In this document: one piece after another, positions 1,311 through 56,000 of the stretch
How the letters are laid out: each line of letters begins with the position of its first letter
Position numbering within the stretch: position 1 is the stretch's first letter
Assembly (NCBI RefSeq): GCF_010470675.1
Contig: NZ_VOIQ01000009.1
Coordinates: 124,001 to 188,000, forward strand
DNA length: 64,000 bases
Direction: 5' to 3'
Source: Desulfovibrio sp. JC010
GTDB taxonomy: Bacteria > Desulfobacterota > Desulfovibrionia > Desulfovibrionales > Desulfovibrionaceae
Position numbers and translations under genes: made by a program
Notes under the pieces: model-generated
The model's input: only the letters and a program-made list of their open reading frames with translations
What the model was told of the DNA's origin: nothing
Databases searched by the model: none

Positions 1311-1356
1311 TGCCTCCGGCGGCTTAAAACCTTTTGTTAAGGCTTCGCCGCTTCGC
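1311..1356 (+). repeat. Dispersed intergenic element, short copy (forward)
   Basis: Starts five bases after the ABC ATPase stop codon with TGCCTCCGGCGGC and ends in GGCTTCGCCGCTTCGC. It has the two conserved ends of the element family but lacks the central hairpin, so it looks like an internally deleted copy. Confidence 0.7.
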
Positions 1357-1377
1357 AAGAAAGCCCATACCAAAATC

Positions 1378-1413
1378 AAGCCCCGCAATATCTTAAAAGA
1401 TATTGCGGGGCTT
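1378..1413. terminator. Perfect inverted repeat between convergent genes, probable bidirectional terminator
   Basis: A 17-bp perfect stem (AAGCCCCGCAATATCTT and its complement) with a two-base loop. The tail is only moderately T-rich on either side. It lies between two oppositely oriented copies of the dispersed element and between converging genes, which suits a shared terminator. Confidence 0.6.
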
Positions 1414-1440
1414 ATTCTATGGAATAATTTTTAAATTTTT

Positions 1441-1530
1441 ATGCGAAGCTTATTAAAAAGTTTTTTGGAGAGTCCAGAGAACCTTTTTTCCCAAAAAAGG
1501 TTCTTTGGTCCCCGAAGGGCCGCCGGAGGC
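1441..1530 (-). repeat. Dispersed intergenic hairpin element (reverse copy)
   Basis: Ends in GGGCCGCCGGAGGC at 1517-1530 and begins with TGCGAAGC. The central hairpin has a 12-bp perfect stem (AGAACCTTTTTT at 1478-1489 paired with 1493-1504). The sequence of this stem differs from other copies, but the palindromic arrangement is the same. It lies just past the 3' end of the small minus-strand membrane gene. Confidence 0.75.
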
Positions 1531-1537
1531 AATAAAA

Positions 1538-1738
1538 CTACTCCGCATCCCGCTTATCTTTAACATTCTTCATAGTCAGCCCGGCAACGCAACCGACCAG
1601 CATGCCAAGCAGCAGGGCCCGCTGAATATCCATAAAAAACCATCCGGCAATTGCTCCAACGGAACCGCCCACCAGAATACCGCGCGCCATGCATTCCAGC
1701 AGCCGCTCAAAATTCTTATCTTCCTTCAACTCACCCAC
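1538..1738 (-). CDS. Small two-helix membrane protein
   Basis: A 66-residue protein of unknown function. It has a charged N-terminus (GELKEDKNFERLLE), two hydrophobic glycine-rich segments (about residues 18-36 and 40-56) with GxxxG-type spacing, and a charged tail (KNVKDKRDAE). This arrangement suggests a small inner-membrane protein that packs as a helical hairpin. The start is a GTG two bases after the stop codon of the upstream PilZ-like gene, so they are almost certainly cotranscribed and translationally coupled. I recognise no family. The tight coupling to a PilZ-like gene is the only hint of role. Confidence 0.65.
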   Translation of the reverse strand: MGELKEDKNFERLLECMARGILVGGSVGAIAGWFFMDIQRALLLGMLVGCVAGLTMKNVKDKRDAE

Positions 1739-1740
1739 AA

Positions 1741-2427
1741 TTACACCTTCTTATTCTGAATTATCGCATCAATCTGATCAGCCTGTTCTTCAGACAGGGA
1801 CAAAAAATTAACCCCTAGCCCCGGCATCTGGGATTTTATTCCCCACGGCACTACCCACTGCACTTCAGCTTTGATCGGAGCCTTGTCGTCCAGTTCCATA
1901 ATAGCGATCCAGAGCGTATCGCCCTTTTTCCACTTTGAAACCGAATATAAAAAACATCCTTCAGCGGAAAAGTTCAAAGCCACGCTCTTTTCCATATGGC
2001 TTTTCGGGATGGATATGTCCCTGTTCAACAGAACATTCAACACCTTGTTCGCCCTTTTGGTGCCACGTAAAGACCGCGCTGTAAAGTTCAGGCAGCTCTC
2101 TTTGAAAAACGCATCCAGAGTATTTCCATGTCCGGAAAATTTTCCGGTGGGGATACAGCGAATCCCTTCAACAGCCTTATAGCTCAGGCGCATGACCGGA
2201 AAATTATCACTCAAAAGATTGGCTTCCGCCTTGTCCGCAGCGGAAGACCTGAGCAGGGTCGGAATATCGATTAGAAACCCGCTATACTTAACCTTGTTGT
2301 GCTTAAGCGCGACATCATGGAGGGACTCGGCTACATCACACTGAATATCAAATTCCTGCAAAGCCCTCAGATAAACGCCCCTGTTATCTCCGGGAGCGGC
2401 AACCAGTAATATCCGTATTTTCTCCAC
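1741..2427 (-). CDS. PilZ-like domain protein with N-terminal receiver-like region
   Basis: A 228-residue cytoplasmic protein. The C-terminal half has a PilZ-type c-di-GMP site: RGTKR at 121-125 (RxxxR) and NFSAEGC at 152-158 (N/DxSxxG), followed by a beta-rich region ending with LGVNFLSLSEEQ. The N-terminal 100 residues (RILLVAAPGDNRG...) look like a response-regulator fold but have no obvious acidic pocket and no clear phosphoacceptor Asp, so they may be a degenerate receiver. The gene leads a two-gene unit with the small membrane protein and is divergent from the kinase gene at 2580. c-di-GMP binding is inferred from the motif only. Confidence 0.75.
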   Translation of the reverse strand: MEKIRILLVAAPGDNRGVYLRALQEFDIQCDVAESLHDVALKHNKVKYSGFLIDIPTLLRSSAADKAEANLLSDNFPVMRLSYKAVEGIRCIPTGKFSGHGNTLDAFFKESCLNFTARSLRGTKRANKVLNVLLNRDISIPKSHMEKSVALNFSAEGCFLYSVSKWKKGDTLWIAIMELDDKAPIKAEVQWVVPWGIKSQMPGLGVNFLSLSEEQADQIDAIIQNKKV

Positions 2428-2579
2428 CCTTAACGAACCTCCAAAAACAAAATCTCTACTTGGCTAATCACAATTATCAATATATACTCAGAAAATCAAA
2501 AATTACACAGTTATAAAGGCTTTCAAACATTAATATAACTTAAGCCGCCAATTCAAACAACTAAATCGGACACTGCCCT

Positions 2580-3698
2580 ATGGATGAGATTCCCAAGATT
2601 CTGACCATTGATGATGACGAAAGTGTCAGGCTTTCCATTGCCCACTACCTTGAAGACAGCGGCTACGAAGTTCTGCAGGCCGCCAACGGTCACGAAGGAC
2701 TGAAGATTTTCAGAGAACAGCAACCGGATGTTATCCTGCTGGACCTGAGAATGCCGGAAATGGACGGTCTTTCCGTTCTCAGGCAATTGGGACAGGAAGC
2801 TCCCCAGACCCCGGTAATCGTGGTTTCCGGGACTGGATCATTTGAAGACGTTATCGCCACTGTGCGGCTGGGTTCATGGGATTATATCCCCAAACCCATA
2901 ACCGACCTCAACGATCTGGAAAACGCCATCAACCGCACCCGCGAAAGAGCGAGGTTAATGGTTGAAAACGAACGTTATAAAGAAGAGCTGGAACAAAAAA
3001 TCCGCGAAAGGACTGAAGAACTGCAACTCATGAACAAAGTCCTTTCCGAAGAAATTTCCGCCCGCAAAAAATCCGAATCGATTGTCCGGGCCTCCCTTGC
3101 CGAAAAAGAAGTCATGCTCAAGGAAATTCACCACCGGGTTAAAAACAACCTGCAGGTAATTTCCAGCCTGCTCAGCCTGCAAAGCGGCTATACCGAAGAC
3201 GCGGAAGCCACCAACCTGCTGCGTGAATGCCAGCACAGGGTGCGCTCCATGTCCATGCTGCATGAAAAACTTTACCGCTCTGAAGATCTGTCACGCATTG
3301 ATATGAGCGAATATGCCGTAACCCTGATCAACTTCCTGCTCCGTTCCTACTCTGTGGACGGCAAAGTCAGGCCGACATATGAAATCAAGGACATCCACAT
3401 GGGCATTGATTCGGCCATTCCCTGTGGACTGATCATCAACGAACTGGTTTCAAACGCGTTGACCCATGCCTACGGACATAACGGCACCGGAGAATTAAAA
3501 GTCTCCATGCAGCGGGAAAACGACCGCATCAAGCTGGAAGTGGCTGACAACGGAAAGGGAATGCCTGATGATTTCAGTATCAGCGAATCGCGGACACTGG
3601 GCATGACTCTGGTGGAAACCCTTGCCCAGCAATTAAGCGGAGAAGTCAATTTCTTTAATGACCACGGTGCCACATTCCAGATCAGCTTTCCAGACTAA
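2580..3698 (+). CDS. Receiver-histidine kinase fusion (HisKA_2 / LuxQ-like kinase)
   Basis: A 372-residue soluble signalling protein. Residues 5-115 form a response-regulator receiver with acidic residues DDD at 11-13, phosphoacceptor Asp55 (LLDLRMPEMDG) and Lys105 (YIPKPI). A coiled coil of about 45 residues follows (ERYKEELEQKIRERTEEL). The kinase part carries KEIHHRVKNNLQ near residue 184, the HisKA_2 phosphorylation motif. It then has an ATPase domain with N-box NELVSNALTHAY and G-box VADNGKGMPDD. There are no membrane segments. An in-frame stop lies just upstream, so the ATG is forced, although no good Shine-Dalgarno sequence is visible. A STAS-domain gene follows, suggesting a regulatory pair. 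The partner is unknown. Confidence 0.9.
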   Translation: MDEIPKILTIDDDESVRLSIAHYLEDSGYEVLQAANGHEGLKIFREQQPDVILLDLRMPEMDGLSVLRQLGQEAPQTPVIVVSGTGSFEDVIATVRLGSWDYIPKPITDLNDLENAINRTRERARLMVENERYKEELEQKIRERTEELQLMNKVLSEEISARKKSESIVRASLAEKEVMLKEIHHRVKNNLQVISSLLSLQSGYTEDAEATNLLRECQHRVRSMSMLHEKLYRSEDLSRIDMSEYAVTLINFLLRSYSVDGKVRPTYEIKDIHMGIDSAIPCGLIINELVSNALTHAYGHNGTGELKVSMQRENDRIKLEVADNGKGMPDDFSISESRTLGMTLVETLAQQLSGEVNFFNDHGATFQISFPD

Positions 3699-3781
3699 AC
3701 TCAGACTTGATTGAATTTCAAAGGCGGTGTAGCCTGCATCCCGTGATCCTTGTACAGAACCACAGAATTAAGGAAAAAAGA

Positions 3782-4135
3782 ATGGAAATCAGCTTTAAAC
3801 AAATAGATGAAATTACCGTTGTTAAGATTGAATCTGCAGAACTAAACCACGTAGTCAGCCATGACTTTCAGCGCCAGATCAATCCGATATTTGATGAGAA
3901 GCAGTTCAACATCGCACTCGATATGGAAAGTGTAGATTTTATGGACAGCATGGGTATCGGCACCCTGATCACCCTGCGCAACAAGCTGATGAAGGAAAAA
4001 GGCAACATCGCCATGTTCAACATCAGTGACCGGGTCAAAAAGATTATCGATATCGCCGCACTGCATAAGGTGTTTGAACTTTACGGCACCGAAGAAGACG
4101 CTGTAAACGGCCTGAAAGAAAAAATGCTGGCCTAA
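3782..4135 (+). CDS. STAS-domain anti-sigma-factor antagonist-like protein
   Basis: A 117-residue single-domain protein of the SpoIIAA/RsbV type. The key motif is DSMGIG at residues 55-60, where the Ser is the expected phosphorylation site for an anti-sigma kinase. The rest matches a STAS alpha/beta fold (VDFMDSMGIGTLITLRNKL). I chose the ATG at 3782 because AGGAAAAAAGA lies just upstream; a 25-residue N-terminal extension is open but out of character for the family. It follows the receiver-kinase gene by about 80 bases and is closed by a strong terminator. No RsbW-like kinase is in the window, so its partner is unknown. Confidence 0.88.
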   Translation: MEISFKQIDEITVVKIESAELNHVVSHDFQRQINPIFDEKQFNIALDMESVDFMDSMGIGTLITLRNKLMKEKGNIAMFNISDRVKKIIDIAALHKVFELYGTEEDAVNGLKEKMLA

Positions 4136-4152
4136 ACGCACTCGATCTTTTC

Positions 4153-4192
4153 AGCCGGGCAGATATCAAAGTCTGCCCGGCTTTATTTTTTT
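4153..4192 (+). terminator. Intrinsic terminator after the STAS gene
   Basis: Stem AGCCGGGCAGA paired with TCTGCCCGGCT, followed by a T-rich tail (TTATTTTTTT). This is a textbook Rho-independent terminator. Confidence 0.9.
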
Positions 4193-4216
4193 CATCCCGC
4201 AACTTCCACCACCATT

Positions 4217-5200
4217 ATGAATTTCTCAAAAGATATCATCAGCCCCACCCTCACTACAATTAAAGATGCCGCCCGCATAAGCCTCGACCTGTTTAAAATT
4301 ATGATCCCGGTAGTCATTGTTGTAAAAATCCTGCAGGAATTTAATCTGGTCGGCTATCTGGCCGCGCCCCTTGCCCCGGTTATGAAGCTGGTCGGGCTGC
4401 CCGGTGAAATGGGTTTGGTCTGGGCCACTGCGCTGATCAACAACATCTACAGCGGGCTGATCGTATTCTTAAGCCTTGCACAGGACCAGCCGCTCACCGC
4501 AGCGCAGGCAACCATTCTCGGAACCATGATCCTTGTGGCCCACTCCATGCCCGTGGAACTGCGAGTGGTCCAGAGTTCCGGCCCCAAGCTCGGCTTCCAG
4601 CTCTTCATCCGCATGGCCGGGGCCTTCATTATGGGTCTGGTGCTGAACCTGATCTATCAGAATTTCGATCTGCTGCAGGGACCGGCAAACATTCTGCTCA
4701 CCCCGGATAATTCAGCCATCGACAAAACCCTGCTGCAATGGGCCATGGGTGAGATACGCAACCTGATTTCCATTTTCGGCATCATCTTCTGCCTGCTGGC
4801 GGTGATGCGTATTCTGACCAAAATACGGGTTATAGCAGCCATGGATTTCCTGCTCCGCCCTTTCCTGACCATGATGGGCATAGGCTCCAAAGCCTCGGCC
4901 CTGACCGTTGTCGGATTGACAATGGGCCTTTCCTATGGCGGCGGAATGATCATCCACGAGGCAAAATCCGGCCGCATAGACAAAAAAGACGTATTCTACT
5001 CCCTGACCTTGATGAGCCTTTGCCACAGCCTCATCGAAGACACACTGCTGCTGATGATGATCGGCGGTCACATATCAGGCCTCTTGTGGGGACATTTGAT
5101 CATGTCCTGCCTGATTGTCGCCGCTCTTGTACAGATTACTAAATTTATCCCGGAGAGCTTCTCCGACAAATATTTATGGGGACTCCCCAAACAATCTTAA
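4217..5200 (+). CDS. Nucleoside-recognition (Gate) domain membrane protein
   Basis: A 327-residue polytopic inner-membrane protein with about eight hydrophobic segments. It fits the Gate/nucleoside-recognition family (SpmA/YjiH-like): an amphipathic N-terminal region is followed by paired membrane domains containing LINNIYSGLIVFLSL and GLSYGGGMIIHEAKSG. The C-terminal half repeats the helix pattern of the N-terminal half. There is no signal peptide. The ATG at 4217 lacks a clear ribosome-binding site. RidA follows 14 bases after the stop, so the two genes are likely cotranscribed. The substrate is not known; this family is often annotated as nucleoside-related without direct proof. Confidence 0.8.
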   Translation: MNFSKDIISPTLTTIKDAARISLDLFKIMIPVVIVVKILQEFNLVGYLAAPLAPVMKLVGLPGEMGLVWATALINNIYSGLIVFLSLAQDQPLTAAQATILGTMILVAHSMPVELRVVQSSGPKLGFQLFIRMAGAFIMGLVLNLIYQNFDLLQGPANILLTPDNSAIDKTLLQWAMGEIRNLISIFGIIFCLLAVMRILTKIRVIAAMDFLLRPFLTMMGIGSKASALTVVGLTMGLSYGGGMIIHEAKSGRIDKKDVFYSLTLMSLCHSLIEDTLLLMMIGGHISGLLWGHLIMSCLIVAALVQITKFIPESFSDKYLWGLPKQS

Positions 5201-5214
5201 AAAAAGGAATGGTT

Positions 5215-5595
5215 ATGATCGTTACTACCGTCAATACCGAAAACGCGCCCGCCGCAATCGGACCGTATTCACAGGCCACCATTTACAATTCCCAGGCATT
5301 CATCAGCGGACAACTCGGCCTTGTCCCGGCAACAGGTGAATTCATTTCCGAGGATGTGGAGGAACAGGCCCGTCAGGCTCTTGAGAATCTCAAATCCATC
5401 CTCGAAGCCTGCGGAAGCGCGTTGACCAAAGTCATCAGTGTGGATGTATTCCTCACCGACATGAACGACTTTGCCAAAGTCAATGCAGTCTATTCCGAAT
5501 TCTTCTCCCAACACAAGCCCGCAAGAGCCGCAGTAGAAGTAAGCGGATTGCCCAAAGGCGGACTTGTTGAGATTAAATGCATTGCTGCGATATAA
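5215..5595 (+). CDS. ridA: RidA family reactive imine/enamine deaminase
   Basis: A 126-residue cytoplasmic enzyme expected to hydrolyse 2-aminoacrylate and related imines released by PLP enzymes. Family marks are NAPAAIGPYSQA near residues 10-21, the catalytic Arg104 in KPARAAVEVSGLP, and Glu119 in GLVEIKCIA. I chose ATG 5215 because AGGA at 5205-5208 is six bases away and the length then matches the family; the ATG at 5209 touches the AGGA directly. It sits 14 bases behind the Gate-domain membrane protein. A hairpin repeat element begins four bases after its stop codon. Confidence 0.93.
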   Translation: MIVTTVNTENAPAAIGPYSQATIYNSQAFISGQLGLVPATGEFISEDVEEQARQALENLKSILEACGSALTKVISVDVFLTDMNDFAKVNAVYSEFFSQHKPARAAVEVSGLPKGGLVEIKCIAAI

Positions 5596-5598
5596 TGA

Positions 5599-5698
5599 TG
5601 CCTCCGGCGGCTGGGGAAGGGGAAACTCTTGCAAGAGTTTCCCCTTCCCCAGACCCCATCCCCTTCAGAACCTTTTAATTTGGCTTCGCCGCTTCGCT
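5599..5698 (+). repeat. Dispersed intergenic hairpin element (forward), with 42-base perfect palindrome
   Basis: Begins with TGCCTCCGGCGGC just after ridA and ends with GGCTTCGCCGCTTCGC. Positions 5611-5652 form a perfect 21+21 palindrome centred on TTGCAA. About 80 bases are essentially identical to the inverted copy at 55923-56002. It probably acts as the ridA terminator. Confidence 0.85.
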
Positions 5699-6148
5699 TG
5701 GCAAATCCACATTTTTGTATTTCATACTTTACAAATTTCGGCAAAAACTACCGCCAAAATCCCGTCTATTTTCCGACACTCCATCCTTTCTGATTTTTGA
5801 CATCTATCCCCTCCATAAAAAACATCACATGATAAAAAGCACTTACTCACCCCCACTAAAACTTGGCACGTATACTGCTTTAAACAAATCAAGACGGACA
5901 CAAGAACAGACTAAACAAACACAAAAAAAATTTTAAAAATAAGAGTCGTTCTTCACCCATCTATAAGAAAATGTTCTGGACTGATAGGCGAGTGCAGGAA
6001 ACGGTAGAAACGAACAGCTTAGAAAAAAATTATACACAAAAGCGATTCTGCCCTCCCTCCCGCGATTGATCCGGACATTTTTTTATGCCCAAATTTCAAC
6101 CCCCTTAAAGGATTGCCCTTCCTTCATACTCCTGTTATCGATTCCGCC
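5699..6148. other. Intergenic region with no convincing gene
   Basis: An AT-rich 450-base stretch between the ridA repeat and trmL. It holds a good sigma-54 promoter (5863-5880) and a 32-codon ORF (5971-6069) without a clear ribosome-binding site. No intrinsic terminator or known structured RNA was recognised. It may be a long trmL leader or encode a small RNA. Confidence 0.5.
5863..5880 (+). promoter_or_regulatory. Sigma-54 (RpoN) promoter candidate
   Basis: TTGGCACGTATACTGCTT matches the -24/-12 consensus with exact GG to GC spacing of ten bases. An AT-rich tract follows. The next annotated gene, trmL, is about 270 bases downstream. No enhancer-binding protein gene is adjacent. Confidence 0.65.
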
Positions 6149-6634: not shown

Positions 6635-6745
6635 ATCAAGGCAGTACCTTTACTGCACATCATTTTGTACCTGCACTTTCTTGCATAACACTACGGCAAC
6701 AGGTATGTTCGCCATTCATAATTTTTAATTATCAGCGGAGACAAT

Positions 6746-8649: not shown

Positions 8650-8668
8650 TCTTCCCCAAAAAGGAAAA

Positions 8669-9643: not shown

Positions 9644-9664
9644 CAGCTAAAATTTATAGCAACT

Positions 9665-16894: not shown

Positions 16895-16900
16895 CTCATC

Positions 16901-17040
16901 GGCGAAGCCGTAATAAAAGGTTTTGGGATTCTTGCTTTAGCTCTTAGGCGAGCGGTCTTTCCGCGAGTCTTAGAGATAAAGACAGTGGAACAAACCCTTT
17001 TGCAAAAGGGTTTAAGGCCCCCGGCAGGGCCCCCGGAGGC
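16901..17040 (-). repeat. Dispersed intergenic hairpin element (reverse) with an inserted second hairpin
   Basis: Starts with GGCGAAGCCG and ends with GGGCCCCCGGAGGC. It contains the AAACCCTTTTGCAAAAGGGT hairpin at about 16992-17014. About 60 extra bases (near 16932-16985) between TTTTGGGATTC and this hairpin can fold into a long imperfect stem of their own. It lies between the ends of two converging genes. Confidence 0.75.
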
Positions 17041-17114
17041 ATCTTTAAAACAAAAAAAAGCGGGAACGACCTGAGCCGTTCCCGCTTTGAATAAGCCTTG
17101 GAAGAAAACCGAAG

Positions 17115-22623: not shown

Positions 22624-22727
22624 TGCCTCCGGCGGCTCTCCGAGGGGCCTATCGGCGATCCCTCCGGGGGCTTAAACCCTTTTGCAAAAGGGTTTAAGAA
22701 TCCCAAAACCTTTTATTTAGCTTCGCT
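22624..22727 (+). repeat. Dispersed intergenic hairpin element (forward)
   Basis: TGCCTCCGGCGGC start, GGGGGCTTAAACCC, central hairpin AAACCCTTTTGCAAAAGGGT, AAGAATCCCAAAACC and AGCTTCGCT end. It abuts the start codon of the minus-strand gltB-like gene and provides its GGAGG on that strand. Confidence 0.85.
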
Positions 22728-28007: not shown

Positions 28008-28074
28008 TAAAACGTTTTGGGATTCTTAAACCCTTTTGGAAAAGGGTTTAAGCCCTCGGAGAGCCGCCGGAGGC
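28008..28074 (-). repeat. Dispersed intergenic hairpin element (reverse)
   Basis: AAACGTTTTGGGATTC, then a TTAAACCCTTTT/AAAAGGGTTTAA stem (GG loop), then GAGCCGCCGGAGGC. The GGAGG at 28069-28073 lies ten bases before the ATG of the small ORF at 28084. Confidence 0.85.
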
Positions 28075-28083
28075 TTCTTTATA

Positions 28084-28293
28084 ATGAATGATGTTGCACT
28101 TGCTACCCCTGTAGAGGGCGGTGTTCGAGACACCAGCATAGAACCGTGGCTGCCGACGGAAAGACCGGACGCGCTCCCGGATTCTATTGATGCGCCCACC
28201 ATGCACCTGCATGAAACAGAGCAGCAGCAGATTGTAGATAAGGCCATCCACAGCCTGACAGGCAAAGGCAATCTCATTGACCGTATTGTTTAG
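28084..28293 (+). CDS. Small hypothetical protein (69 residues)
   Basis: A 69-residue soluble, acidic protein of unknown function (starts MNDVALATPVEGGVRDTSIE, ends GKGNLIDRIV). It has no membrane segment and no cysteine. The ATG is spaced ten bases from a GGAGG supplied by the preceding hairpin element, and a strong terminator follows the stop codon, so it forms a complete transcription unit. Coding quality looks acceptable but the gene is short. An alternative is that the region is only a leader. Confidence 0.6.
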   Translation: MNDVALATPVEGGVRDTSIEPWLPTERPDALPDSIDAPTMHLHETEQQQIVDKAIHSLTGKGNLIDRIV

Positions 28294-36210: not shown

Positions 36211-36223
36211 GGCCGCCGGAGGC
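36211..36223 (-). repeat. Fragment of the dispersed element
   Basis: GGCCGCCGGAGGC is the gene-proximal end of the repeat family, with no hairpin beside it. Its GGAGG is 12 bases ahead of the permease ATG. Confidence 0.6.
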
Positions 36224-36234
36224 GGCATAGACTC

Positions 36235-37137
36235 ATGATCAGCTTATATGCATTTATGGGGGCCATTGAGCAGGGGACTGCTTTCGGGCTCATGGTTTTA
36301 GGTGTGTACCTCACATTCAGGGTACTTGATTTCCCAGACCTTACTGTGGACGGCAGTCTGCCGCTGGGAGCTGCGGTTTCTGCTGTGGCCATCAGCAACG
36401 GCTACCATCCCCTTGTAGGCATGAGTATGGCTGTGGGAGCCGGGTTCATTGCCGGGGCGGTAACCGGAATCCTGAATACCAAATTCAAAATCCTGCACCT
36501 GCTGGCATCCATCCTGACCATGATCTCCCTCTACTCCATAAATATCCGCATCATGGGCAGGCCAAACATGACCCTGCTCGGCGAGGACACCCTCATCGAC
36601 CAGTTCATTGAGCTGAGTGGACTCCCGCCCCACTTTTCCACCCCCATACTTTTCGCGATTATTTCCGGCGGTGCTCTACTGGCACTGATCTGGTTTCTGA
36701 AGACATCTTTCGGACTGGCAATGCTAGCCACCGGGGACAACCCCAAAATGATCACCAGTCTCGGCGTAAACCGCGATATGATGATCATCTTCGGAGTCGG
36801 TCTTTCAAACGGCATGGTTGCCCTTTCCGGCGCACTGGTGGCCCAGAATCAGGGTGCTGCGGACGTGAACATGGGCATCGGGACCATCATTGCCGGGCTG
36901 GCCTCGGTCATCATCGGGGAAACCCTTTTCGGCAAGCCCAACGTAACCCGAGCCATGCTGGCCGCCCTGCTCGGCTCCATTGTCTACCGCATTGCCATCG
37001 CGCTGGCCCTTGGTGTACGTTTGGGCGATTTTGCATTCACTCCCAGCGACCTTAACCTTGTTACCGCCGCACTGGTCGTGGTGGCGTTAGTTTCTCCGCA
37101 GATTAAATCCGGTTTACTCAAAAGGAGGGCTGCCTAA
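36235..37137 (+). CDS. ABC transporter permease (COG4120/TrpY-like)
   Basis: A 300-residue inner-membrane permease with about eight hydrophobic segments. The pattern FGLMVLGVYLTFRVLDFPDL TV near the N-terminus and GAIVGGI-type helices (GAVTGILNTKFK) match the branched-chain/TrpY permease group that pairs with PF04392 binding proteins. ATG 36235 uses a GGAGG from a repeat fragment. The stop overlaps the ATPase start by one base. The importer's probable binding protein is at 33829. A possible attenuator lies in the 280-base leader. Confidence 0.9.
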   Translation: MISLYAFMGAIEQGTAFGLMVLGVYLTFRVLDFPDLTVDGSLPLGAAVSAVAISNGYHPLVGMSMAVGAGFIAGAVTGILNTKFKILHLLASILTMISLYSINIRIMGRPNMTLLGEDTLIDQFIELSGLPPHFSTPILFAIISGGALLALIWFLKTSFGLAMLATGDNPKMITSLGVNRDMMIIFGVGLSNGMVALSGALVAQNQGAADVNMGIGTIIAGLASVIIGETLFGKPNVTRAMLAALLGSIVYRIAIALALGVRLGDFAFTPSDLNLVTAALVVVALVSPQIKSGLLKRRAA

Positions 37138-38436: not shown

Positions 38437-38437
38437 T

Positions 38438-39241
38438 ATGACTAAAAAAGTTGGATTTATCGGCACAGGCAACATGGGCGCCGCCATAATCAGAGGAATG
38501 GCCGGCGATGACAGCATCAACCTGCTTGGTTCCGACCTGAACAAAACGGCACTGAACGCCCTTGCCGAAGAGACCGGGCTCATTCAATGTGAGACTCCCC
38601 GCGATCTTGCCAAGGAATCCGACTTCATCGTGCTGGCGGTCAAACCACAGCACGCTCCCGCAGTTCTGGAAGAAATCGCACCTGAGCTTAATGAGTCCAA
38701 ATGCGTTATCTCCATTGCCGCCGGCCTGACCGTGCACAAGCTCAAGGATTGCTGCGAAAACCGCTGCCCTGTTGTCCGGGTTATGCCCAACACCCCCGCG
38801 CTGGTTAATGCGGGCGTGTTCGCAGTATGTCTTGATGACAACCACCTGAGCGATGAACAGGCTAACTTCACCCGCGACATGTTCACCCCCCTCGGAGATG
38901 TATACGCGCTGGCAGAAAGCCAGTTCGATGCTTTCACCGGGGTTATCGGGTCCGGTCCCGCTTATGTCTTCTATTTCATTGAAGCCATGATCGAGTCCGC
39001 GGTTGAGCTGGGCATCCCCCGCGATCAGGCCACAGCCATGGTCAACAAGCTGTTTGAAGGCTCCACCAAGCTGGCACAGGAAAGCAAATTCCACGTCAGC
39101 CAACTGCGTGAAATGGTAACCTCCCCCGGAGGAACAACCGTTAAAGCCCTCGTACATCTGGACCGTACTGCCACCCGCGCCAATATCATTGATGCGGTTC
39201 GCAAAAGCTATGAGCGCAGTGTGGAACTCGGGAAAAAGTAG
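38438..39241 (+). CDS. proC: Pyrroline-5-carboxylate reductase
   Basis: A 267-residue NAD(P)H enzyme for the last step of proline synthesis. It has the nucleotide motif FIGTGNMGAAI (5-15), VLAVKPQHAP (about 70), VVRVMPNTPALVNAGV (about 112) and the C-terminal GSGPAYVFYFIEAM and TSPGGTTVKAL dimer-site motifs. It follows ndk by one base. A hairpin element begins at its last stop-codon base and probably terminates the transcript. Confidence 0.97.
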   Translation: MTKKVGFIGTGNMGAAIIRGMAGDDSINLLGSDLNKTALNALAEETGLIQCETPRDLAKESDFIVLAVKPQHAPAVLEEIAPELNESKCVISIAAGLTVHKLKDCCENRCPVVRVMPNTPALVNAGVFAVCLDDNHLSDEQANFTRDMFTPLGDVYALAESQFDAFTGVIGSGPAYVFYFIEAMIESAVELGIPRDQATAMVNKLFEGSTKLAQESKFHVSQLREMVTSPGGTTVKALVHLDRTATRANIIDAVRKSYERSVELGKK

Positions 39242-39312
39242 CCTCCGGCGGCCCTCCGGGGGCCAGAAAAACTTTTGCAAAAGTTTCTCTGGACTCTTCA
39301 AAACCTTTTAGT
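39241..39312 (+). repeat. Dispersed intergenic hairpin element (forward)
   Basis: GCCTCCGGCGGCCCTCCGGG, a short AACTTTTGCAAAAGTTT hairpin, then CTCTTCAAAACCTTTTAG. Its first base is the last base of the proC stop codon. Confidence 0.8.
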
Positions 39313-39356: not shown

Positions 39357-39392
39357 GAAAAGGAGACTTGATTTGATCAAGTCTCCTTTTTT
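39357..39392 (+). terminator. Intrinsic terminator
   Basis: AAAAGGAGACTTGA pairs with TCAAGTCTCCTTTTTT. It closes the ndk-proC transcript past the repeat element. Confidence 0.85.
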
Positions 39393-50435: not shown

Positions 50436-50527
50436 AATAAAAATAAATAAACAACCCTAAAGTAATCTTAAACCCCGCCGATACGGAATTTGTAAACCGC
50501 TTATAACTCTAAAAAGAGGATAGCCAT

Positions 50528-50995: not shown

Positions 50996-51022
50996 GCAAA
51001 TTAAGCCATAATACAGCGCAAA

Positions 51023-51062
51023 AAGCGGAGTCGGTACCATTAACACCGGCTCCGCCTTTTTT
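51023..51062 (+). terminator. Intrinsic terminator after the FlxA-like gene
   Basis: GCGGAGTCGGT pairs with ACCGGCTCCGC, one mismatch, followed by a T-run (CTTTTTTA). Confidence 0.85.
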
Positions 51063-51146
51063 ATTCAAACTATTGCTCTTAACTTTGACAACAGCACGGA
51101 AAGCATTTACCCCAGAGACATTAAATAAATCCGATGGAGGAACTTC

Positions 51147-51659
51147 ATGAATTTGAGGGATTATATCCGCGACATTCCCGACTTTCCCAAAGAAGGAATC
51201 GTATACTTTGACATCACCCCGCTTCTGGCCGAGCCCAAAGCATTCCAATATACTATCGACCAGCTGGCAGAACGCTTTGCCGACTACAAGATAGACAAGA
51301 TCGCTGCTGCAGAAGCCCGTGGCTTCATCTTCGGCGCACCGCTGGCCAGCAAGCTGAACATAGGCTTCGTACCCATCCGCAAGCCCGGCAAGCTGCCTTA
51401 CGAGACCATCTCCGTAAGCTACGACCTTGAATACGGCACCGACAACCTGAGCATGCACATTGATGCAGTCTCCAAAGATGAAAACGTGCTGCTCATCGAT
51501 GATGTTCTTGCCACCGGCGGAACAGCAGAAGGAATGGTCAAACTGGTTGAAAAAGCAGGCGGCAACGTATCCGCCATGGGCTTCATCGCCGAACTCAGCT
51601 TCCTTGACGGAAAGAGCAAGCTGGGCGGAATTGAAACCACAAGCCTCATCCAGCTTTAA
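51147..51659 (+). CDS. apt: Adenine phosphoribosyltransferase
   Basis: A 170-residue salvage enzyme joining adenine and PRPP to make AMP. It has the N-terminal IPDFPKEGIVYFDITPLL, AAEARGFIFGAPLA, and the PRPP loop VLLIDDVLATGGTAEGMV (about 114-131). All are diagnostic. GGAGG lies eight bases before the ATG. A terminator follows, then mtnP, which releases adenine for this enzyme. Confidence 0.97.
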   Translation: MNLRDYIRDIPDFPKEGIVYFDITPLLAEPKAFQYTIDQLAERFADYKIDKIAAAEARGFIFGAPLASKLNIGFVPIRKPGKLPYETISVSYDLEYGTDNLSMHIDAVSKDENVLLIDDVLATGGTAEGMVKLVEKAGGNVSAMGFIAELSFLDGKSKLGGIETTSLIQL

Positions 51660-51672
51660 TCAGGACATTTCA

Positions 51673-51705
51673 AAACTCCTGCCGTGATCATAAAGATTGC
51701 AGCAG
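51673..51705 (+). terminator. Intrinsic terminator after apt
   Basis: AACTCCTGC pairs with GCAGGAGTT across a loop of about 19 bases, with a TTTTTTC tail. Confidence 0.78.
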
Positions 51706-51750
51706 GAGTTTTTTCTTTTATTTCACCTTTGCAGACAAGGAAAAACTACC

Positions 51751-52497
51751 ATGGCAGTTATCGGCATCATCGGCGGCAGCGGACTGGACAATCCGGACAT
51801 CCTCAAAGACGCAAAAGATTCTGAAGTTTCAAATAAATGGGGCGAACCCAGCTCCCCCATCAGGTCGGGCAAAATCGCAGGCAAAGAAGTCCACATCATC
51901 GGCCGCCACGGGCGCGAACACACCATCCCCCCGACCTACGTCAACAACCGCGCCAACATTCAGGCTCTCAAGGACCTCGGTTGCGATTACATTCTCGCCA
52001 CCACTGCCGTAGGCTCTCTGCGTGAGGAGATCGACCGCGGACATCTGGTCATAATCGACCAGTTCATCGATTTCACCCGCAAGCGTGAACTCACATTTTT
52101 CGAAAGCTTTGAGCCACACGCCCCTGCCCACACTCCCATGGCCGAACCTTTTGATGCCGACATGCGCGCCAAGATGACCGCAGCCTGCAATGAACTAGGT
52201 GTTACCGTGCATGACAAAGGCACCGTGGTAACCATCGAAGGCCCGCGTTTCTCCACCCGCGCAGAATCACACATGTTCCGCGCATGGGGTGCAGACATCA
52301 TCAACATGTCCACCGCCCCCGAAGCCATCCTCGCCAATGAAGCGGGAATCCCCTACGCCGCAGTAGCCATGTCTACCGACTACGATTGCTGGAAGACTGA
52401 TGAAGCACCTGTCACATGGGATGATATTCTTGCTATTTTTAAGGCTAATGCGGAAAACGTTACCTCAATGCTGATCAAGACTATTGAGAATATTTAA
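51751..52497 (+). CDS. mtnP: S-methyl-5'-thioadenosine phosphorylase
   Basis: A 248-residue PNP-family enzyme that splits methylthioadenosine into adenine and methylthioribose-1-phosphate. It has IIGGSGLDNPD (5-15), the phosphate-site RHGREHTIPP (about 50), YVNNRANIQALKDLG, and TIEGPRFSTRAESHMFRAW with NMSTAPEAILA (about 155-195). I chose ATG 51751, which has AAGGA upstream; the frame stays open further back. Its stop overlaps the mtaD start by one base. Adenine from it would feed apt. Confidence 0.94.
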   Translation: MAVIGIIGGSGLDNPDILKDAKDSEVSNKWGEPSSPIRSGKIAGKEVHIIGRHGREHTIPPTYVNNRANIQALKDLGCDYILATTAVGSLREEIDRGHLVIIDQFIDFTRKRELTFFESFEPHAPAHTPMAEPFDADMRAKMTAACNELGVTVHDKGTVVTIEGPRFSTRAESHMFRAWGADIINMSTAPEAILANEAGIPYAAVAMSTDYDCWKTDEAPVTWDDILAIFKANAENVTSMLIKTIENI

Positions 52498-53825
52498 TGC
52501 AACCCAATAAATGTGATTTAATCATCAAGAGTTCATACATTCTCACCCAAAATGATGAACGCGAACTTATAGAAAACGGAGCCATTGCTGTCAGTGGCTC
52601 CGTCATTTCCTCTGTAGGCACGCAGACTGATATTGAATCAGCATGGATTGCGGATGAAACAATTGACTGCGGCAAATCCGTTATCCTGCCCGGTTTGATT
52701 AACGCCCATACCCACGTGCCTATGACTCTCATGCGCGGGGTGGCCGACGACCTGCCGCTGCTGGAATGGTTGCATAATTACATGTTTCCCATTGAATCGG
52801 GCTTAACCAAAGACCTGGTTGAATTGGGTGCCCGGCTGGGTTGTGCAGAAATGGTTGCCAGCGGCACCACTGCTATTTTTGATGGCTACATGTATGAAGA
52901 TGCAGTTGGCAAGGCAGTTGATGAAACCGGGATGAAAGCGGTTTTGGGTGAGGGTTTCTTCAAATTTCCTTCGCCGTTCTTCAAAACAGCGCAGGATGCA
53001 TGGGATGTTATTGAAGCGTTGCATGATCAGTTTGCCGACCATGAACGGATCAGGACTGCTGTCACGCCCCACGCGGTATTCACCACCGATCCCGACCAGC
53101 TTGCCGAGAGCATGGAACTTGCCGAACGGCTGGACCTGCTCTGGCAGATTCATGCTGCGGAATCCGTGCCGGAAACCAAGCTTACGCTGGAAACTTTCGG
53201 AAAAAGGCCCATTCAGATATTAAAAGAATACGAATTACTCCGCGAACGCACCCGGTTGCATCACTGTGTGGATGTAACTGATGAAGAAATCGGCTGGATT
53301 AAGGATGCAGGGGCCATGATCGCCCATAATCCGCAGTCCAATCTCAAACTTGGTTCGGGCATCTGTCCGCTGACCAAATTCCTTGAAGCCGGGGTAACTG
53401 CCGGGCTGGGAACTGACGGTGCTGCCAGCAACAACAATCTGGACATGTTTGATGAAATGCGCACCGCTGCCTTGCTCCAAAAAGGTTTCCTGCAGGACCC
53501 GGAAGCCATGCCCGCCCAGACAGTTCTTGACATGGCAACTGTTTCAGGTGCTGATTTTCTGGGATTTCATGATACCGGAAAACTTGAGACAGGAATGAAA
53601 GCGGACATCATCGCTATAAATATGGACAAGATGCACCTTAAACCTGTATACAACCCCCTCTCGCACGTTATTTACTCCGCCGGGGGACAGGATGTCCGCT
53701 TGACAGTCTGTGACGGTAAGGTTCTTTACCGGGATGGAAAATTTCTGACCGTGGACGTGGAAACTATTTCACGAGAAGCGGAAAAGGCCGTCGAATGGGC
53801 TTTACAGCGGCTTGAGAACCGCTGA
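52497..53825 (+). CDS. mtaD: 5-methylthioadenosine/S-adenosylhomocysteine deaminase
   Basis: A 442-residue metal-dependent amidohydrolase. The metal-binding sites are NAHTHVPMTLMRG (first His pair), HAAESVPE, HHCVDVTDE and GTDGAASNNNLDMFDEM, the MtaD/TrzA signature. It deaminates methylthioadenosine or S-adenosylhomocysteine to the inosine forms. It is translationally coupled to mtnP. Both enzymes act on methylthioadenosine, so the pair either competes for it or covers different nucleosides. Confidence 0.9.
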   Translation: MQPNKCDLIIKSSYILTQNDERELIENGAIAVSGSVISSVGTQTDIESAWIADETIDCGKSVILPGLINAHTHVPMTLMRGVADDLPLLEWLHNYMFPIESGLTKDLVELGARLGCAEMVASGTTAIFDGYMYEDAVGKAVDETGMKAVLGEGFFKFPSPFFKTAQDAWDVIEALHDQFADHERIRTAVTPHAVFTTDPDQLAESMELAERLDLLWQIHAAESVPETKLTLETFGKRPIQILKEYELLRERTRLHHCVDVTDEEIGWIKDAGAMIAHNPQSNLKLGSGICPLTKFLEAGVTAGLGTDGAASNNNLDMFDEMRTAALLQKGFLQDPEAMPAQTVLDMATVSGADFLGFHDTGKLETGMKADIIAINMDKMHLKPVYNPLSHVIYSAGGQDVRLTVCDGKVLYRDGKFLTVDVETISREAEKAVEWALQRLENR

Positions 53826-53861
53826 GTGGATATTTTTTGAAATCTGCAATGCGTTTTTTCC

Positions 53862-53891
53862 TTGACAACATAGGGGAAGACTGCATATGCA
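53862..53891 (+). promoter_or_regulatory. Possible sigma-70 promoter for the PxxKW gene
   Basis: TTGACA at 53862 is followed after 18 bases by TATGCA. It is well placed, about 80 bases before the ATG at 53971. Confidence 0.4.
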
Positions 53892-53970
53892 TTTGTGCTT
53901 TTCCAAGCAAAGATATTTAAAGATAAAACAACGCTTGTTCGCAAGCGACTTGCCAAACAGGAGGCGCTAC

Positions 53971-54261
53971 ATGGCTAAAAAGAATGCAAGAGTACACGCA
54001 CTCGAAGGTGCAGCAATGACTGCTGAAGGTCTTTCCTACAAAGGCGTAATTCTCGAAACCGTTGTTGAAAAATGTGACGGTTGTGAACGCGCAGTTGAGT
54101 TCGAAGGTTCCAAATACTGTCCCAGCTACGCTCAGCCCGCTAAAAAGTGGTCCCACAGCGTATGCAACTTCGCCACCCACGTGCGTGCCGGTGTTGACAA
54201 AGAAGGTAAAGTTAAAGTTAACCCGCTTAAAGCATCCAAGCGTGCTGCACGCGGTCGCTAG
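53971..54261 (+). CDS. PxxKW-family cysteine-rich protein
   Basis: A 96-residue soluble protein with four cysteines (35, 38, 50 and 65) in an arrangement KCDGC...KYC...VC that suggests a bound metal ion or iron-sulfur centre. The motif QPAKKW at 55-60 identifies the PxxKW family, known mainly from Desulfovibrio-like bacteria. Both ends are basic (AKKNARVHA and KASKRAARGR), which hints at nucleic-acid or ribosome contact. A perfect AGGAGG precedes the ATG, and two hairpin terminators follow. Its function is not established. Confidence 0.88.
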   Translation: MAKKNARVHALEGAAMTAEGLSYKGVILETVVEKCDGCERAVEFEGSKYCPSYAQPAKKWSHSVCNFATHVRAGVDKEGKVKVNPLKASKRAARGR

Positions 54262-54375
54262 TAACTCAGCATCTGAATTAATAAATTCTATCCGCAAAAT
54301 TATATTTTGTGGAAATGATGCAAGTTACACGCGAACACTGTCTTTTCAGGCAAGTCGTTAACTGCATATTACCGG

Positions 54376-54400
54376 AAAAACATTCTTAACGAGTGTTTTT
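54376..54400 (+). terminator. Intrinsic terminator after the PxxKW gene
   Basis: AAAAACATTC pairs with GAGTGTTTTT over the TTAAC loop, ending in a T-run. Confidence 0.75.
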
Positions 54401-54426
54401 CAACCGATTCATTTCGTGTATCATGG

Positions 54427-54455
54427 GAGCCGGACTTGTTCCGGCTCTTCTCTTT
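54427..54455 (+). terminator. Second terminator-like hairpin
   Basis: GAGCCGGA pairs perfectly with TCCGGCTC over CTTGT, followed by TTCTCTTT. Confidence 0.6.
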
Positions 54456-54519
54456 GGTACGCTGAAACATAAACTGATTTCCACAACCCTGTATCTGACG
54501 CATATCCGGAGAAACACCA

Positions 54520-55740
54520 ATGCCCACTCAGCTTCTTTCAAAAATCGACGACATGAAAGACGCAGCTCTCGACCTCCACGCCAAGCTGGTTGCCATTCCC
54601 GCCATCGGTCCCACCAACAATGGAACCGGGGAAAAAGCAAAAGCGGATTTCCTCACCGAATATCTCAAGGAGAACGGATTCGGGGAAGTGAAATCATACA
54701 ACGCCCCGGATAATCGGGTGGAGTGCGGATATAGACCCAATCTGGTCACCGTTATTCCCGGACAGGACAGCTCCAGAACCCTGTGGATCATATCCCACAT
54801 GGACGTAGTTCCCGTAGGCGACCTGAGCCTCTGGGATACCGATCCTTTCAAGATGGTGCAGGACGGAGATGCCCTCTACGGACGCGGCGTGGAAGACAAT
54901 CATCAGGGACTGGTCAGTTCCGTTCTCGCTGCCAAGGCACTCATGGATTCCGGCATGACTCCGGGCATCAACGTCGGCCTCATCTTTGTCTCCGACGAAG
55001 AAACAGGCTCCCACTACGGTCTTGAATACATGGTCAAAGAACACGGCGACCTGTTCAAAAAGAACGACCTTTTCCTCGTACCCGATTCCGGCGAACCCGA
55101 TTCCGCACTGGTGGAAATCGCGGAAAAATCCTCCATCTGGTTCAAGGTCACAGTGGAAGGCAAGCAGTGCCACGCATCCACACCGGAGCAGGGCGTCAAC
55201 TCCCTTGTCGCGGCTGCAGCCATGATCATGGAGGTTCCGGAACTAAAATACCATTTTGATGAGGAAGACGAACTTTTCTCTCCGCCCTACTCCACTTTCG
55301 AGCCGACTAAAAAAGAAGCCAACGTGGAAAACATCAATACCATTCCCGGCAAAGATGTTTTCTACATCGACTGCCGCATCCTGCCCAGCTACGACCTGCA
55401 GGAAGTAATTGATCAGGTCAAAGGCATGGCTCTCTACGTAGCCGAGGAATACGGCGTAAAAATTTCCGTAGATATTGAAAGCAAAAGTCAGGCAGCACCG
55501 CCTACCCCGGCTGATGCCGAAATCGTTGAAAAAGTATGTTTCGCGGTCAAGGAAGTCTACGGTGTGGACGCAAAACCGGGCGGAATCGGCGGCGGAACCG
55601 TTGCCGCACATCTGCGCGAGCTGGGCTACCAGACCGTTGTCTGGTCCACCCTGCTGCATCAGGCCCACCAGCCCAACGAAAAAGGGTCCATCAGCAATAC
55701 CCTCAATGACGCAAAAGTAATGGCACTTCTGCCATTCTAA
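54520..55740 (+). CDS. M20-family metallohydrolase (DapE/ArgE-like)
   Basis: A 406-residue zinc peptidase/deacylase. Metal and catalytic residues appear in ISHMDVVPVGDL (first His and Asp), YGRGVEDNHQGLVSS, VSDEETGSHYG (catalytic Glu) and VPDSGEPDS. The C-terminal part has the dimerisation domain and the last His in LLHQAHQPNEKGS. The family includes succinyl-diaminopimelate desuccinylase and acetylornithine deacetylase; argD in this window gives weak support for ArgE-like use, but the substrate is unknown. GGAG lies upstream. A hairpin element follows the stop. Confidence 0.88.
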   Translation: MPTQLLSKIDDMKDAALDLHAKLVAIPAIGPTNNGTGEKAKADFLTEYLKENGFGEVKSYNAPDNRVECGYRPNLVTVIPGQDSSRTLWIISHMDVVPVGDLSLWDTDPFKMVQDGDALYGRGVEDNHQGLVSSVLAAKALMDSGMTPGINVGLIFVSDEETGSHYGLEYMVKEHGDLFKKNDLFLVPDSGEPDSALVEIAEKSSIWFKVTVEGKQCHASTPEQGVNSLVAAAAMIMEVPELKYHFDEEDELFSPPYSTFEPTKKEANVENINTIPGKDVFYIDCRILPSYDLQEVIDQVKGMALYVAEEYGVKISVDIESKSQAAPPTPADAEIVEKVCFAVKEVYGVDAKPGGIGGGTVAAHLRELGYQTVVWSTLLHQAHQPNEKGSISNTLNDAKVMALLPF

Positions 55741-55743
55741 GAA

Positions 55744-55816
55744 TGCCTTCGGCGACCCTGCCGGGGGCCTTAAACCCTTTTTGTAAAAAGGGTTTAAGAA
55801 TCCCAAAAACTTTTAG
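55744..55816 (+). repeat. Dispersed intergenic hairpin element (forward)
   Basis: TGCCTTCGGCGACCCTGCCG start (more diverged than other copies), TTAAACCCTTTTTGTAAAAA hairpin with its complement, then AAGAATCCCAAAAACTTTTA. It lies directly after the M20 gene. Confidence 0.8.
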
Positions 55817-55910
55817 TTGTTTATATTAATTACTATATTTCTAAATTGTGCCATAAGCACTGAACAGAAAAGTAGAAATTAACTTCACAACAAATTTAAT
55901 AAGACCTCCC

Positions 55911-56000
55911 GGCGAAGCCCGATAAAAGGTTCTGAAGGGGATGGGGTCTGGGGAAGGGGAAACTCTTGCAAGAGTTTCCCCTTCCCCAGCCGCCGGAGGC
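55911..56000 (-). repeat. Dispersed intergenic hairpin element (reverse), 42-base perfect palindrome
   Basis: GGCGAAGCCC start and GCCGCCGGAGGC end. Positions 55948-55989 repeat the same perfect 42-base palindrome as 5611-5652. GGAGG at 55995-55999 is ten bases before the mnmG ATG. Confidence 0.88.

What the first reader, a model, noticed from the sequence alone, without database searches (positions are those of the whole stretch)
1311..56000. Family of about ten dispersed intergenic hairpin elements with compensatory variation
Copies at 1311, 1441, 5599, 16901, 22624, 28008, 36211 (fragment), 39241, 55744 and 55911 share one end rich in CCTCCGGCGG and, in complete copies, another with GGATTC-like CAAAACCTTTTA and GCTTCGCC. 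Central hairpins differ (AAACCCTTTT.., GGGGAAACTCTT.., AGAACCTTTTTT.., AACTTTT..) yet each stays self-complementary. That pattern points to selection on structure in RNA or DNA rather than shared sequence alone. The number of copies in 64 kb is high, and all are intergenic.
Basis: seen in the sequence. Interest (0 to 1): 0.7.

Follow-up and report, generated by a model that had tools for sequence, protein, structure and literature searches.

The report
Triplex-patterned hairpin repeats at gene ends
Short DNA hairpins scattered between the genes of this bacterium carry a neighbouring stretch of sequence that matches the hairpin by the pairing rules of a three-stranded DNA helix, and where the hairpin differs between copies that stretch tends to differ with it, which suggests that a triple helix is what evolution preserves.

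Summary
In detail: ten intergenic copies in the window, and the conserved end TGCCTCCGGCGGC 206 times in the 4.39 Mb genome against 0 for the reversed control.

The hairpin does not vary alone. The stretch after it follows the 5' arm in PARALLEL orientation (A→T, G→C, T→A, C→C). Own tails beat permuted tails for 65 distinct hairpins of this genome (z 12.2) and 47 from other genera, 7 of them Clostridia (z 14.6). Direct-repeat and Watson-Crick controls lie between -3.4 and 6.0. Read on the other strand, this is the code of an intrastrand DNA triple helix whose third strand switches between purine strands. Run lengths agree.

Of 59 copies facing a stop codon, 39 start -2 to 7 nt from it. Copy number is 0-206 among 17 congeners. 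Orthologous sites gain, lose or swap hairpin class. The genome has no Y1 transposase.

Closest known: BoxC/PIT/TM_ECO intrastrand triplex repeats (PMC4666352). A finder modelled on the published one misses these elements. I rate this a new variant of a known kind; triplex formation is untested.

The parts
1311..1349 (+). Copy 1, truncated: R-end 1311-1323, tail AAAACCTTTTG, L-end GGCTTCGCC 1341-1349; central hairpin missing; R-end 5 nt after the stop of the gene ending 1305
1377..1414 (.). 17-pair hairpin, terminator-like (GCCCCGCAATATCTT..AAGATATTGCGGGGC), between the two facing copies; seven relatives have a different hairpin sequence here
1441..1531 (-). Copy 2: R-end 1519-1531, GC module, hairpin AAAGAACCTTTTTT/AAAAAAGGTTCT, tail CCAAAAAACTTTTTA (6 T:A pairs, 6 A in tail), L-end GCGAAGC 1443-1449
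5599..5690 (+). Copy 3: R-end 5599-5611, 5' arm CTGGGGAAGGGGAAACTCTT, tail ACCCCATCCCCTTCAGAACC (TCTT in apex answered by AGAA in tail), L-end 5682-5690; 3 nt after the stop at 5595
16900..17041 (-). Copy 4: R-end variant 17029-17041, hairpin TAAACCCTTTT/AAAAGGGTTTG, tail separated from the hairpin by roughly 60 nt of other sequence, L-end 16900-16909; a terminator-like hairpin lies between its R-end and the next gene
22624..22726 (+). Copy 5: R-end, two GC modules, hairpin CTTAAACCCTTTT/AAAAGGGTTTAAG, tail AATCCCAAAACCTTTTA, L-end 22720-22726; orthologous copies in relatives
28008..28075 (-). Copy 6: R-end 28063-28075, whose reverse complement (with GGAGG) ends 8 nt before the ATG of a small called ORF (start 28084); loop CC and tail AAAACG
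36212..36224 (-). Copy 7: lone R-end, 10 nt before the ATG at 36235
39240..39312 (+). Copy 8: R-end overlaps the stop codon at 39239-39241 (proC-like gene); hairpin AGAAAAACTTTT/AAAAGTTTCTCT, tail CTTCAAAACCTTTTA; separate terminator-like hairpin 39358-39390
55744..55816 (+). Copy 9: R-end variant TGCCTTCGGCGA, hairpin CTTAAACCCTTTTT/AAAAAGGGTTTAAG, tail AATCCCAAAAACTTTTA (5 T:A pairs, 5 A); 3 nt after the stop at 55740
55910..56001 (-). Copy 10: identical over 82 nt to copy 3 in inverted orientation; R-end 55989-56001, whose reverse complement places GGAGG before the ATG at 56010 (protein read as MnmG-like from its sequence, recalled)

Best explanation
These are copies of a non-coding DNA repeat, apparently non-autonomous. 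Its conserved property is an intrastrand triple helix on the strand that ends GCCGCCGGAGGCA-3'. SHOWN (sequence statistics): a hairpin plus an adjoining tail, where the tail obeys the triplex code against the hairpin. On that strand the third strand carries A (sometimes T) or G over 5'-arm purines, antiparallel. It then carries T or G over 3'-arm purines, parallel, with one triplet usually left out where it changes purine strand. SHOWN: genome-wide spread, tight position next to stop codons and some start codons, large copy-number differences between congeners, presence/absence and hairpin-class differences at orthologous sites, no target-site duplication in 8 facing pairs, no Y1 transposase. 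INFERRED: the fold forms transiently when the duplex opens (behind RNA polymerase, at the fork, in repair). The folded strand stalls or recruits DNA enzymes, so copies spread and overwrite each other by recombination or template switching, or by an unidentified enzyme that reads the folded strand. The edges of transcription units are where such copies are tolerated.
For: Permutation test, own genome: 138 R-ends in 1.22 Mb, 100 with a hairpin, 65 distinct. z 12.2 for the triplex code, 10.0 for strict parallel complement, and -3.4, 2.4, 4.1, -2.8 for direct repeat of the 5' and 3' arm and antiparallel pairing with the 5' and 3' arm. Fetched loci elsewhere: 88 hairpins, 52 distinct, z 15.0. After dropping own-genus loci and one chance hit, 47 distinct: 14.6, parallel complement 14.2, controls -0.7, 5.1, 6.0, -0.1. 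Leave-one-letter-out, 115 distinct: A→T 0.68 (permuted 0.51), A→A 0.21 (0.14), A→C 0.105 (0.33), G→C 0.82 (0.46), T→A 0.87 (0.56), C→C 0.76 (0.49), C→G 0.046 (0.04). Tail A-run equals the number of T:A pairs in 73 of 90 and 56 of 68 parsed (permuted means 0.40, 0.44; maxima 0.53, 0.60), and arm and tail C-runs correlate 0.80 and 0.73. One A dropped at the switch in 26 of 38 and 47 of 62 parsed. Other phylum. Position. Turnover. No TSD in 8 pairs.
Against: No structure was measured. For the known E. coli motif, in vivo DMS footprinting did not show a stable triplex and earlier work found no promoter or terminator activity (PMC4666352, sections 3 and 20). Many copies in this genome have short purine tracts (class a has AAA only), so their triplex would be weak. 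A finder that I wrote after the published one (homopurine stem >=8, loops 1-6) scores 1 hit in 464 kb against 4 in one random sequence; with loop 2 up to 24, 9 against 4. Exceptions: Halodesulfovibrio TTGTT against AAAAA, the CC-loop subfamily with tail CG, 17 of 90 and 12 of 68 off the A-run rule, 15 of 62 outside off the skip rule. Two controls are above zero (direct repeat of the 3' arm up to 5.8, antiparallel with the 5' arm 4.1-6.0), and strict parallel complement is nearly as good outside. The permutation does not model relatedness of copies, and the outside set was found through its tail. No mobilising enzyme was found. No replication-strand bias in G003 (44 against 47, origin assumed at dnaA).
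Confidence: 0.62

Rival explanations
1. Ordinary palindromic mobile repeats (REP/REPIN or MITE): the hairpin is the transposase substrate and the tail pattern is inherited by descent within subfamilies.
For: High, uneven copy number among congeners; a pair found in own only among eight comparable genomes; facing pairs with inverted ends; intergenic placement.
Against: No PF01797 match in this genome; 14 of 17 genus genomes, own included, have none. No target-site duplication beyond 2 nt in 8 facing pairs. The arm-tail code holds across hairpin classes and in a second phylum with different sequences, which descent alone does not easily explain.
Confidence: 0.18
2. RNA element of 3' UTRs: the hairpin and tail act in the mRNA (stabiliser, attenuator with tail competing for the 3' arm, or a U-A-U RNA triplex).
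For: R-end starts -2 to 7 nt from the stop codon in 39 of 59 stop-facing copies, and in 17 of 25 stop-facing copies among 40 R-ends of new sequence. At 1311 and 39240 the copy lies between stop and terminator-like hairpin. The class a tail resembles the 5' arm.
Against: 29 of 88 intergenic copies face a start codon of the nearest called gene, so their sense RNA is the other strand. Copy 4 lies beyond a terminator-like hairpin. Antiparallel pairing of the tail with the 3' arm scores -2.8, 0.4 and -0.1. C→C has no counterpart that I know of in an RNA pyrimidine triplex.
Confidence: 0.13
3. The G-rich strand folds as a G-quadruplex.
For: Class d copies carry four GGGG runs on the strand ending GCCGCCGGAGGCA (visible).
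Against: The class a, b and c copies that I read lack four G-runs in hairpin and tail yet follow the arm-tail rule; a quadruplex does not predict T:A counts equal to tail A-runs.
Confidence: 0.03
4. Intrinsic transcription terminators dispersed with gene ends.
For: Hairpins just after stop codons; one 10-pair, 3-GC scan hit lies inside copy 2.
Against: In the copies read, no T-run directly follows the big hairpin on either strand. The 17-pair and 15-pair terminator-like hairpins at the two scanned sites lie beside the elements. Not all copies were scanned.
Confidence: 0.04

Closest known systems
Intrastrand triplex motifs TM_ECO = BoxC = PIT elements (Holder et al. 2015, PMC4666352; I read the abstract, sections 10, 15, 16, 18, the first part of sections 3 and 20, and search passages; the Hoyne/Maher papers only as it describes them)
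   Same: Repeated, intergenic, both orientations, copy number very uneven among close relatives, facing pairs, purine-motif third strand tethered to a hairpin, sites that are deleted or changed between strains, no transposase found nearby.
   Different: Their third strand reads one homopurine stem, order Y-R-R (class II). Here the order is third strand first (class I), the apex continues with purines on the other arm so the third strand changes strand, stems and loops fall outside their search rules, and the sequence is unrelated (their consensus: 0 of 319 loci). They report no trend in distance to genes; here copies abut stop and some start codons.
REP / REPIN / RAYT systems (features recalled)
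   Same: Small palindromes, extragenic, often facing pairs, near 3' ends of genes.
   Different: No Y1_Tnp gene in this genome; an arm-tail triplex rule is not part of REPs as I know them.
MITEs (features recalled)
   Same: Non-coding, high copy, inverted ends in composites.
   Different: No target-site duplication seen in 8 facing pairs, no parent transposase identified.

Membership tests
Intrastrand triplex motif (ITxF definition) | Third strand, purine stem and pyrimidine stem consecutive on one strand with code A/T.A-T and G.G-C | tested here: met
   Arm-tail code; met with a strand switch and usually one skipped triplet
Intrastrand triplex motif (ITxF definition) | Homopurine stem (here >=8) with loops of 1-6 nt and at most one mismatch | tested here: not met
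   My own class I finder: 1 hit in 464 kb, one Markov-1 random sequence 4; loop 2 up to 24: 9 against 4
TM_ECO / BoxC | Consensus CCCTCNCCCN3-6GGGNGAGGGN3GGGNGAGGG | tested here: not met
   0 of 319 loci
Intrastrand triplex motif | Triplex formation in vitro (CD, NMR) or in vivo | not testable with these tools
   no bench data
REP/REPIN with RAYT | Cognate Y1-type transposase in the genome | tested here: not met
   0 matches in own genome; 3 of 17 genus genomes have any
MITE | Target-site duplication around inverted ends | tested here: inconclusive
   8 facing exact pairs in 1.22 Mb, longest match 2 nt; single copies not tested
Intrinsic terminator | T-run directly after the stem | tested here: not met
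   read by eye in the 69 elements listed and the 7 folded; scan at two sites only
Rfam families | Match over gathering score | tested here: not met
   0 in the window; 15 matches below gathering score at 1300-1540

The most novel reading that the evidence does not exclude
A natural alternate-strand DNA triple helix is under selection in bacteria of two phyla. The third strand has co-evolved base by base with a hairpin that switches purine strand, and the folded single strand is the unit by which the repeat copies or replaces itself at the edges of genes.
Probability: 0.45. Interest if true: 0.9.

Novelty: new variant of a known kind. Interest (0 to 1): 0.72.

Why it matters
Whether intrastrand DNA triplexes matter in living cells is an open question: the E. 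coli motif folds in vitro but was not seen folded in vivo (PMC4666352). A family in which many distinct hairpins carry a matching third strand gives an evolutionary test of that question and a ready set of natural compensatory variants. If the fold is selected, triplexes join hairpins as structures that shape bacterial genomes, and the stop-codon niche gives a place to look for an effect.

Tried and rejected
REP/RAYT: rejected as a present-day system in this genome, no Y1_Tnp. Rfam: no family. Terminator: at two scanned sites separate hairpins look like the terminators. Translated mini-ORF from the ATG often formed with the preceding A: the frame differs between classes, rejected by reading. 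H-type RNA pseudoknot from the T-run/A-run match (my first idea): dropped because it does not explain the lower-stem match and the connecting loops look too short. Alternative pairing of the tail with the 3' arm: dropped by the controls. Phages and plasmids as carriers: no match for one 75-nt query at E 1e-5; 19 viral stretches hold the tail pattern, not examined. Replication-strand bias: none seen in G003 (44 against 47), a weak test. RNAalifold on one alignment of 96 distinct elements gave no structure and the script stopped with an error. Literature: 3 papers; 1; 0; 324 papers for two of three terms, 20 listed; element strings; 181 papers, 30 listed, none on this subject; 19; 4; 0; 0. Only open-licence PubMed Central text is held, so subscription papers were not searched. 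Except PMC4666352, I saw only listings. Not done: a tree-aware covariation test, a covariance model, a genome-wide scan of all classes.
Full report
WHAT IS THERE. Read from the R-end, a full copy is: TGCCTCCGGCGGC, optional small GC hairpins (CCCTTCGGGGACC, CCCTGCCGGGGGCC, TCTCCGAGGGCC), a central hairpin, a tail of about 15-30 nt with an A-run and CTTTTA, and often an L-end GGCTTCGCC. Central hairpins fall into classes (my labels): (a) CTTAAACCCTTTT..AAAAGGGTTTAAG, (b) CCAAAGAACCC.., (c) CCAAAGAAAC.., (d) CTGGGGAAGGGGAAC.., and a short class. The exact R-end occurs 206 times in the 4,393,525-bp genome and the reversed string 0 times. In 824 kb that I gene-called, 93 R-ends with at most one mismatch were found, 88 outside called genes. 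Of 138 R-ends in 1.22 Mb, 100 have a stem of at least 8 in the next 125 nt, against 8, 5 and 11 in shuffles.

WHERE IT SITS. By the nearest called gene, 59 of the 88 intergenic R-ends face a stop codon and 29 a start codon. Of the 59, 39 begin -2 to 7 nt from the stop, with further groups near 32-42 and 68-79 nt, where an extra module GCGC..GCGCTTTTTGAT often precedes the R-end. In sequence not used before (C3, C4; 40 R-ends), 25 follow a stop of a long frame, 17 of them at -1 to 6 nt; 4 precede a start and 11 do neither within my limits. Random positions anywhere fall within 7 nt after such a stop in 47 of 4000 draws. In the family loci (26 R-ends) the distances are looser: 8 of 12 after-stop copies lie at 4-15 nt. 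Of 29 start-facing copies, 10 lie 1-10 nt from the start; in three of the window's copies the reverse complement then supplies GGAGG. Gaps holding a copy: 29 of 98 convergent, 40 of 449 tandem, 6 of 98 divergent.

THE TAIL FOLLOWS THE HAIRPIN. In 78 of 85 own elements selected for a tail, the tail A-run equals the T-run of the hairpin apex. Reading further down, the whole tail matches the 5' arm in parallel. Examples: GGGGAAGGGGAGAGAAAACTTTG with CCCCATCCCCTCTCTTTCAAAG (C1:67974), GAGAGGGAAAACTTTT with CTCTCCCTTTCAAAA (C2:126180), GGGGGAGAGGGAACCCCTTTTTG with CCCCCTCTCCCTCCCCAAAAAC (L295). The two copies at 5599 and 55910, identical over 82 nt, carry TCTT in the apex and AGAA in the tail.

TEST. 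I took hairpins anchored on the R-end only (own genome; 65 distinct) and hairpins anchored on a tail pattern in fetched loci (52 distinct), and scored each 5' arm against its own tail and against permuted tails. Triplex code (A→T, G→C, T→A, C→C): z 12.2 and 15.0. Strict parallel complement: 10.0 and 14.7. Direct repeat of the 5' arm: -3.4 and -0.8; of the 3' arm: 2.4 and 5.8. Antiparallel Watson-Crick with the 5' arm: 4.1 and 6.0; with the 3' arm: -2.8 and 0.4. The 52 still held loci of the own genus (L266, L267, L292, L293; L267 is from the own genome) and one evident chance hit (L219). Without these and L268, 47 distinct remain, 7 of them from Clostridia, one with a hairpin also seen in the own set: 14.6, 14.2, -0.7, 5.1, 6.0 and -0.1 in the same order. 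Leaving each letter out of the score in turn recovers the code (115 distinct, before that cleaning): A meets T 0.68 or A 0.21, G meets C 0.82, T meets A 0.87, C meets C 0.76 and G only 0.046. Counting runs, the tail A-run equals the number of T:A pairs in 73 of 90 (own) and 56 of 68 (outside) parsed elements, permuted means 0.40 and 0.44, and arm and tail C-runs correlate 0.80 and 0.73. At the purine-to-pyrimidine step of the 5' arm the tail is one T short of the A-run in 26 of 38 and 47 of 62 parsed elements. Of the 12 own elements with a difference of two, the examples printed are ones where my hairpin finder ran into the spacer. Outside, 13 show no loss and 2 a gain. Limits: permutation ignores descent, the outside set was found through a pyrimidine-rich tail pattern, and elements that did not parse are not counted.

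READING IT. On the strand that ends GCCGCCGGAGGCA-3' the tail precedes the hairpin. Its letters there are A (or T) and G over 5'-arm purines in antiparallel orientation, the purine motif, and T and G over 3'-arm purines in parallel orientation. The purine-motif triads are as given in PMC4666352; the parallel G.G-C and T.A-T set and alternate-strand switching are from my own knowledge, and one search found no open paper with my three terms. On the R-first strand, C over a C-G pair has no standard triad that I know of. The C→C rule therefore points to the former strand and to DNA, since the purine motif is reported not to form in RNA (PMC4666352, section 3).

RELATIVES AND TURNOVER. Exact R-end counts in 17 genus genomes run from 0 to 206. 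Seven of the 17 other family genomes searched have 10-46, and those of other families 0-2. A tail pattern hit 118 stretches of named genomes. I printed hits from 53 of these loci, and several (L118, L125, L129, L145, L159, L170) show no hairpin and are chance. Hairpin and tail together occur in Desulfovibrionaceae WSYE01, Desulfovibrio sp. UBA2564, Halodesulfovibrio spirochaetisodalis, Solidesulfovibrio aerotolerans, Clostridia bacterium RGIG6183 and RGIG5253, an uncultured Ruminococcus and Clostridiaceae S33_Bin4. Window sites compared with nine relatives (presence judged by eye, part of the output was cut): the pair at 1311-1531 is absent in all seven comparable relatives, which have 76-100 bp with a different hairpin. 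The pair at 55744-56001 is present in own, diverged in G003, apparently decayed in G001 and G013, not seen in G011 (97 bp) and absent (17-25 bp) in G007, G016, G010, G008 and G004. The copy at 22624 is shared with G007, G016, G010 and, changed, G011 and G003; it is not seen in G001, and three relatives were not comparable. The copy after the proC-like gene (39240) is answered by a different hairpin class in G003, G007, G016 and G004, and by shortened or diverged forms in G010, G011 and G013. The copy at 36212 could not be compared, and at 16901 only G010 could (no element). Two further sites, empty in own where the genes overlap, carry elements of different classes in relatives; at one of them G003 has a lone R-end, G001 a decayed copy, and G016 is empty too. 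Eight facing exact pairs show no target-site duplication beyond 2 nt.

COMPARISON. The closest described kind is the intrastrand triplex repeat of E. coli (BoxC/PIT/TM_ECO; PMC4666352, parts read as listed above). It works like ours would, but ours fails that work's search rules as I re-coded them and its consensus, has the third strand at the 5' side and changes purine strand. That paper's main text has no mention of Desulfovibrio, Ruminococcus or stop codon. Searches for a description of this family found none, within an open-access library and, a capped list. REP/RAYT fails on the transposase.

VERDICT. The repeat family and the arm-tail code are solid. That the code reflects a DNA triple helix is the best reading. 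That the triple helix forms in cells, and how copies spread, are inferred. 

Noticed in passing
window 1377-1414; also near C1:29090, C2:28310, C2:218730: The terminator-like hairpin between facing copies has a recurring core AATATCTT..AAGATATT (GCCCCGCAATATC, GACCGTAATATC), as if a terminator travels with the facing pair.
   Followed up: no
C1:167252, C2:166405, C1:83815 and similar: A subclass has a 5' extension GCGCTACCGCGCTTTTTGATgaactGATTT before the R-end, and its own start is again close to the stop codon.
   Followed up: no
Clostridia RGIG6183 loci L166, L173, L191: Some copies carry the hairpin apex flipped (T6 C A5 instead of T5 G A6) while the tail stays A5, consistent with counting T:A pairs rather than T's.
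   Followed up: partly
window 28084-28293: Small ORF after copy 6 whose sequence recurs in relatives with different upstream DNA (by eye); G011 also has an R-end where its ribosome-binding site would be.
   Followed up: no
window 5599-5690 and 55910-56001: Class d copies carry four GGGG runs on one strand and could also form a G-quadruplex.
   Followed up: no
G002 (7 matches), G007 (3), G003 (1): Y1_Tnp matches occur in only 3 of 17 congeners, partly at contig ends, with no clear relation to R-end copy number (1, 145 and 91).
   Followed up: partly
viral loci L301-L319: The tail pattern occurs in 19 viral stretches, three of them from two records of one source (IMGVR_UViG_2890915291).
   Followed up: no
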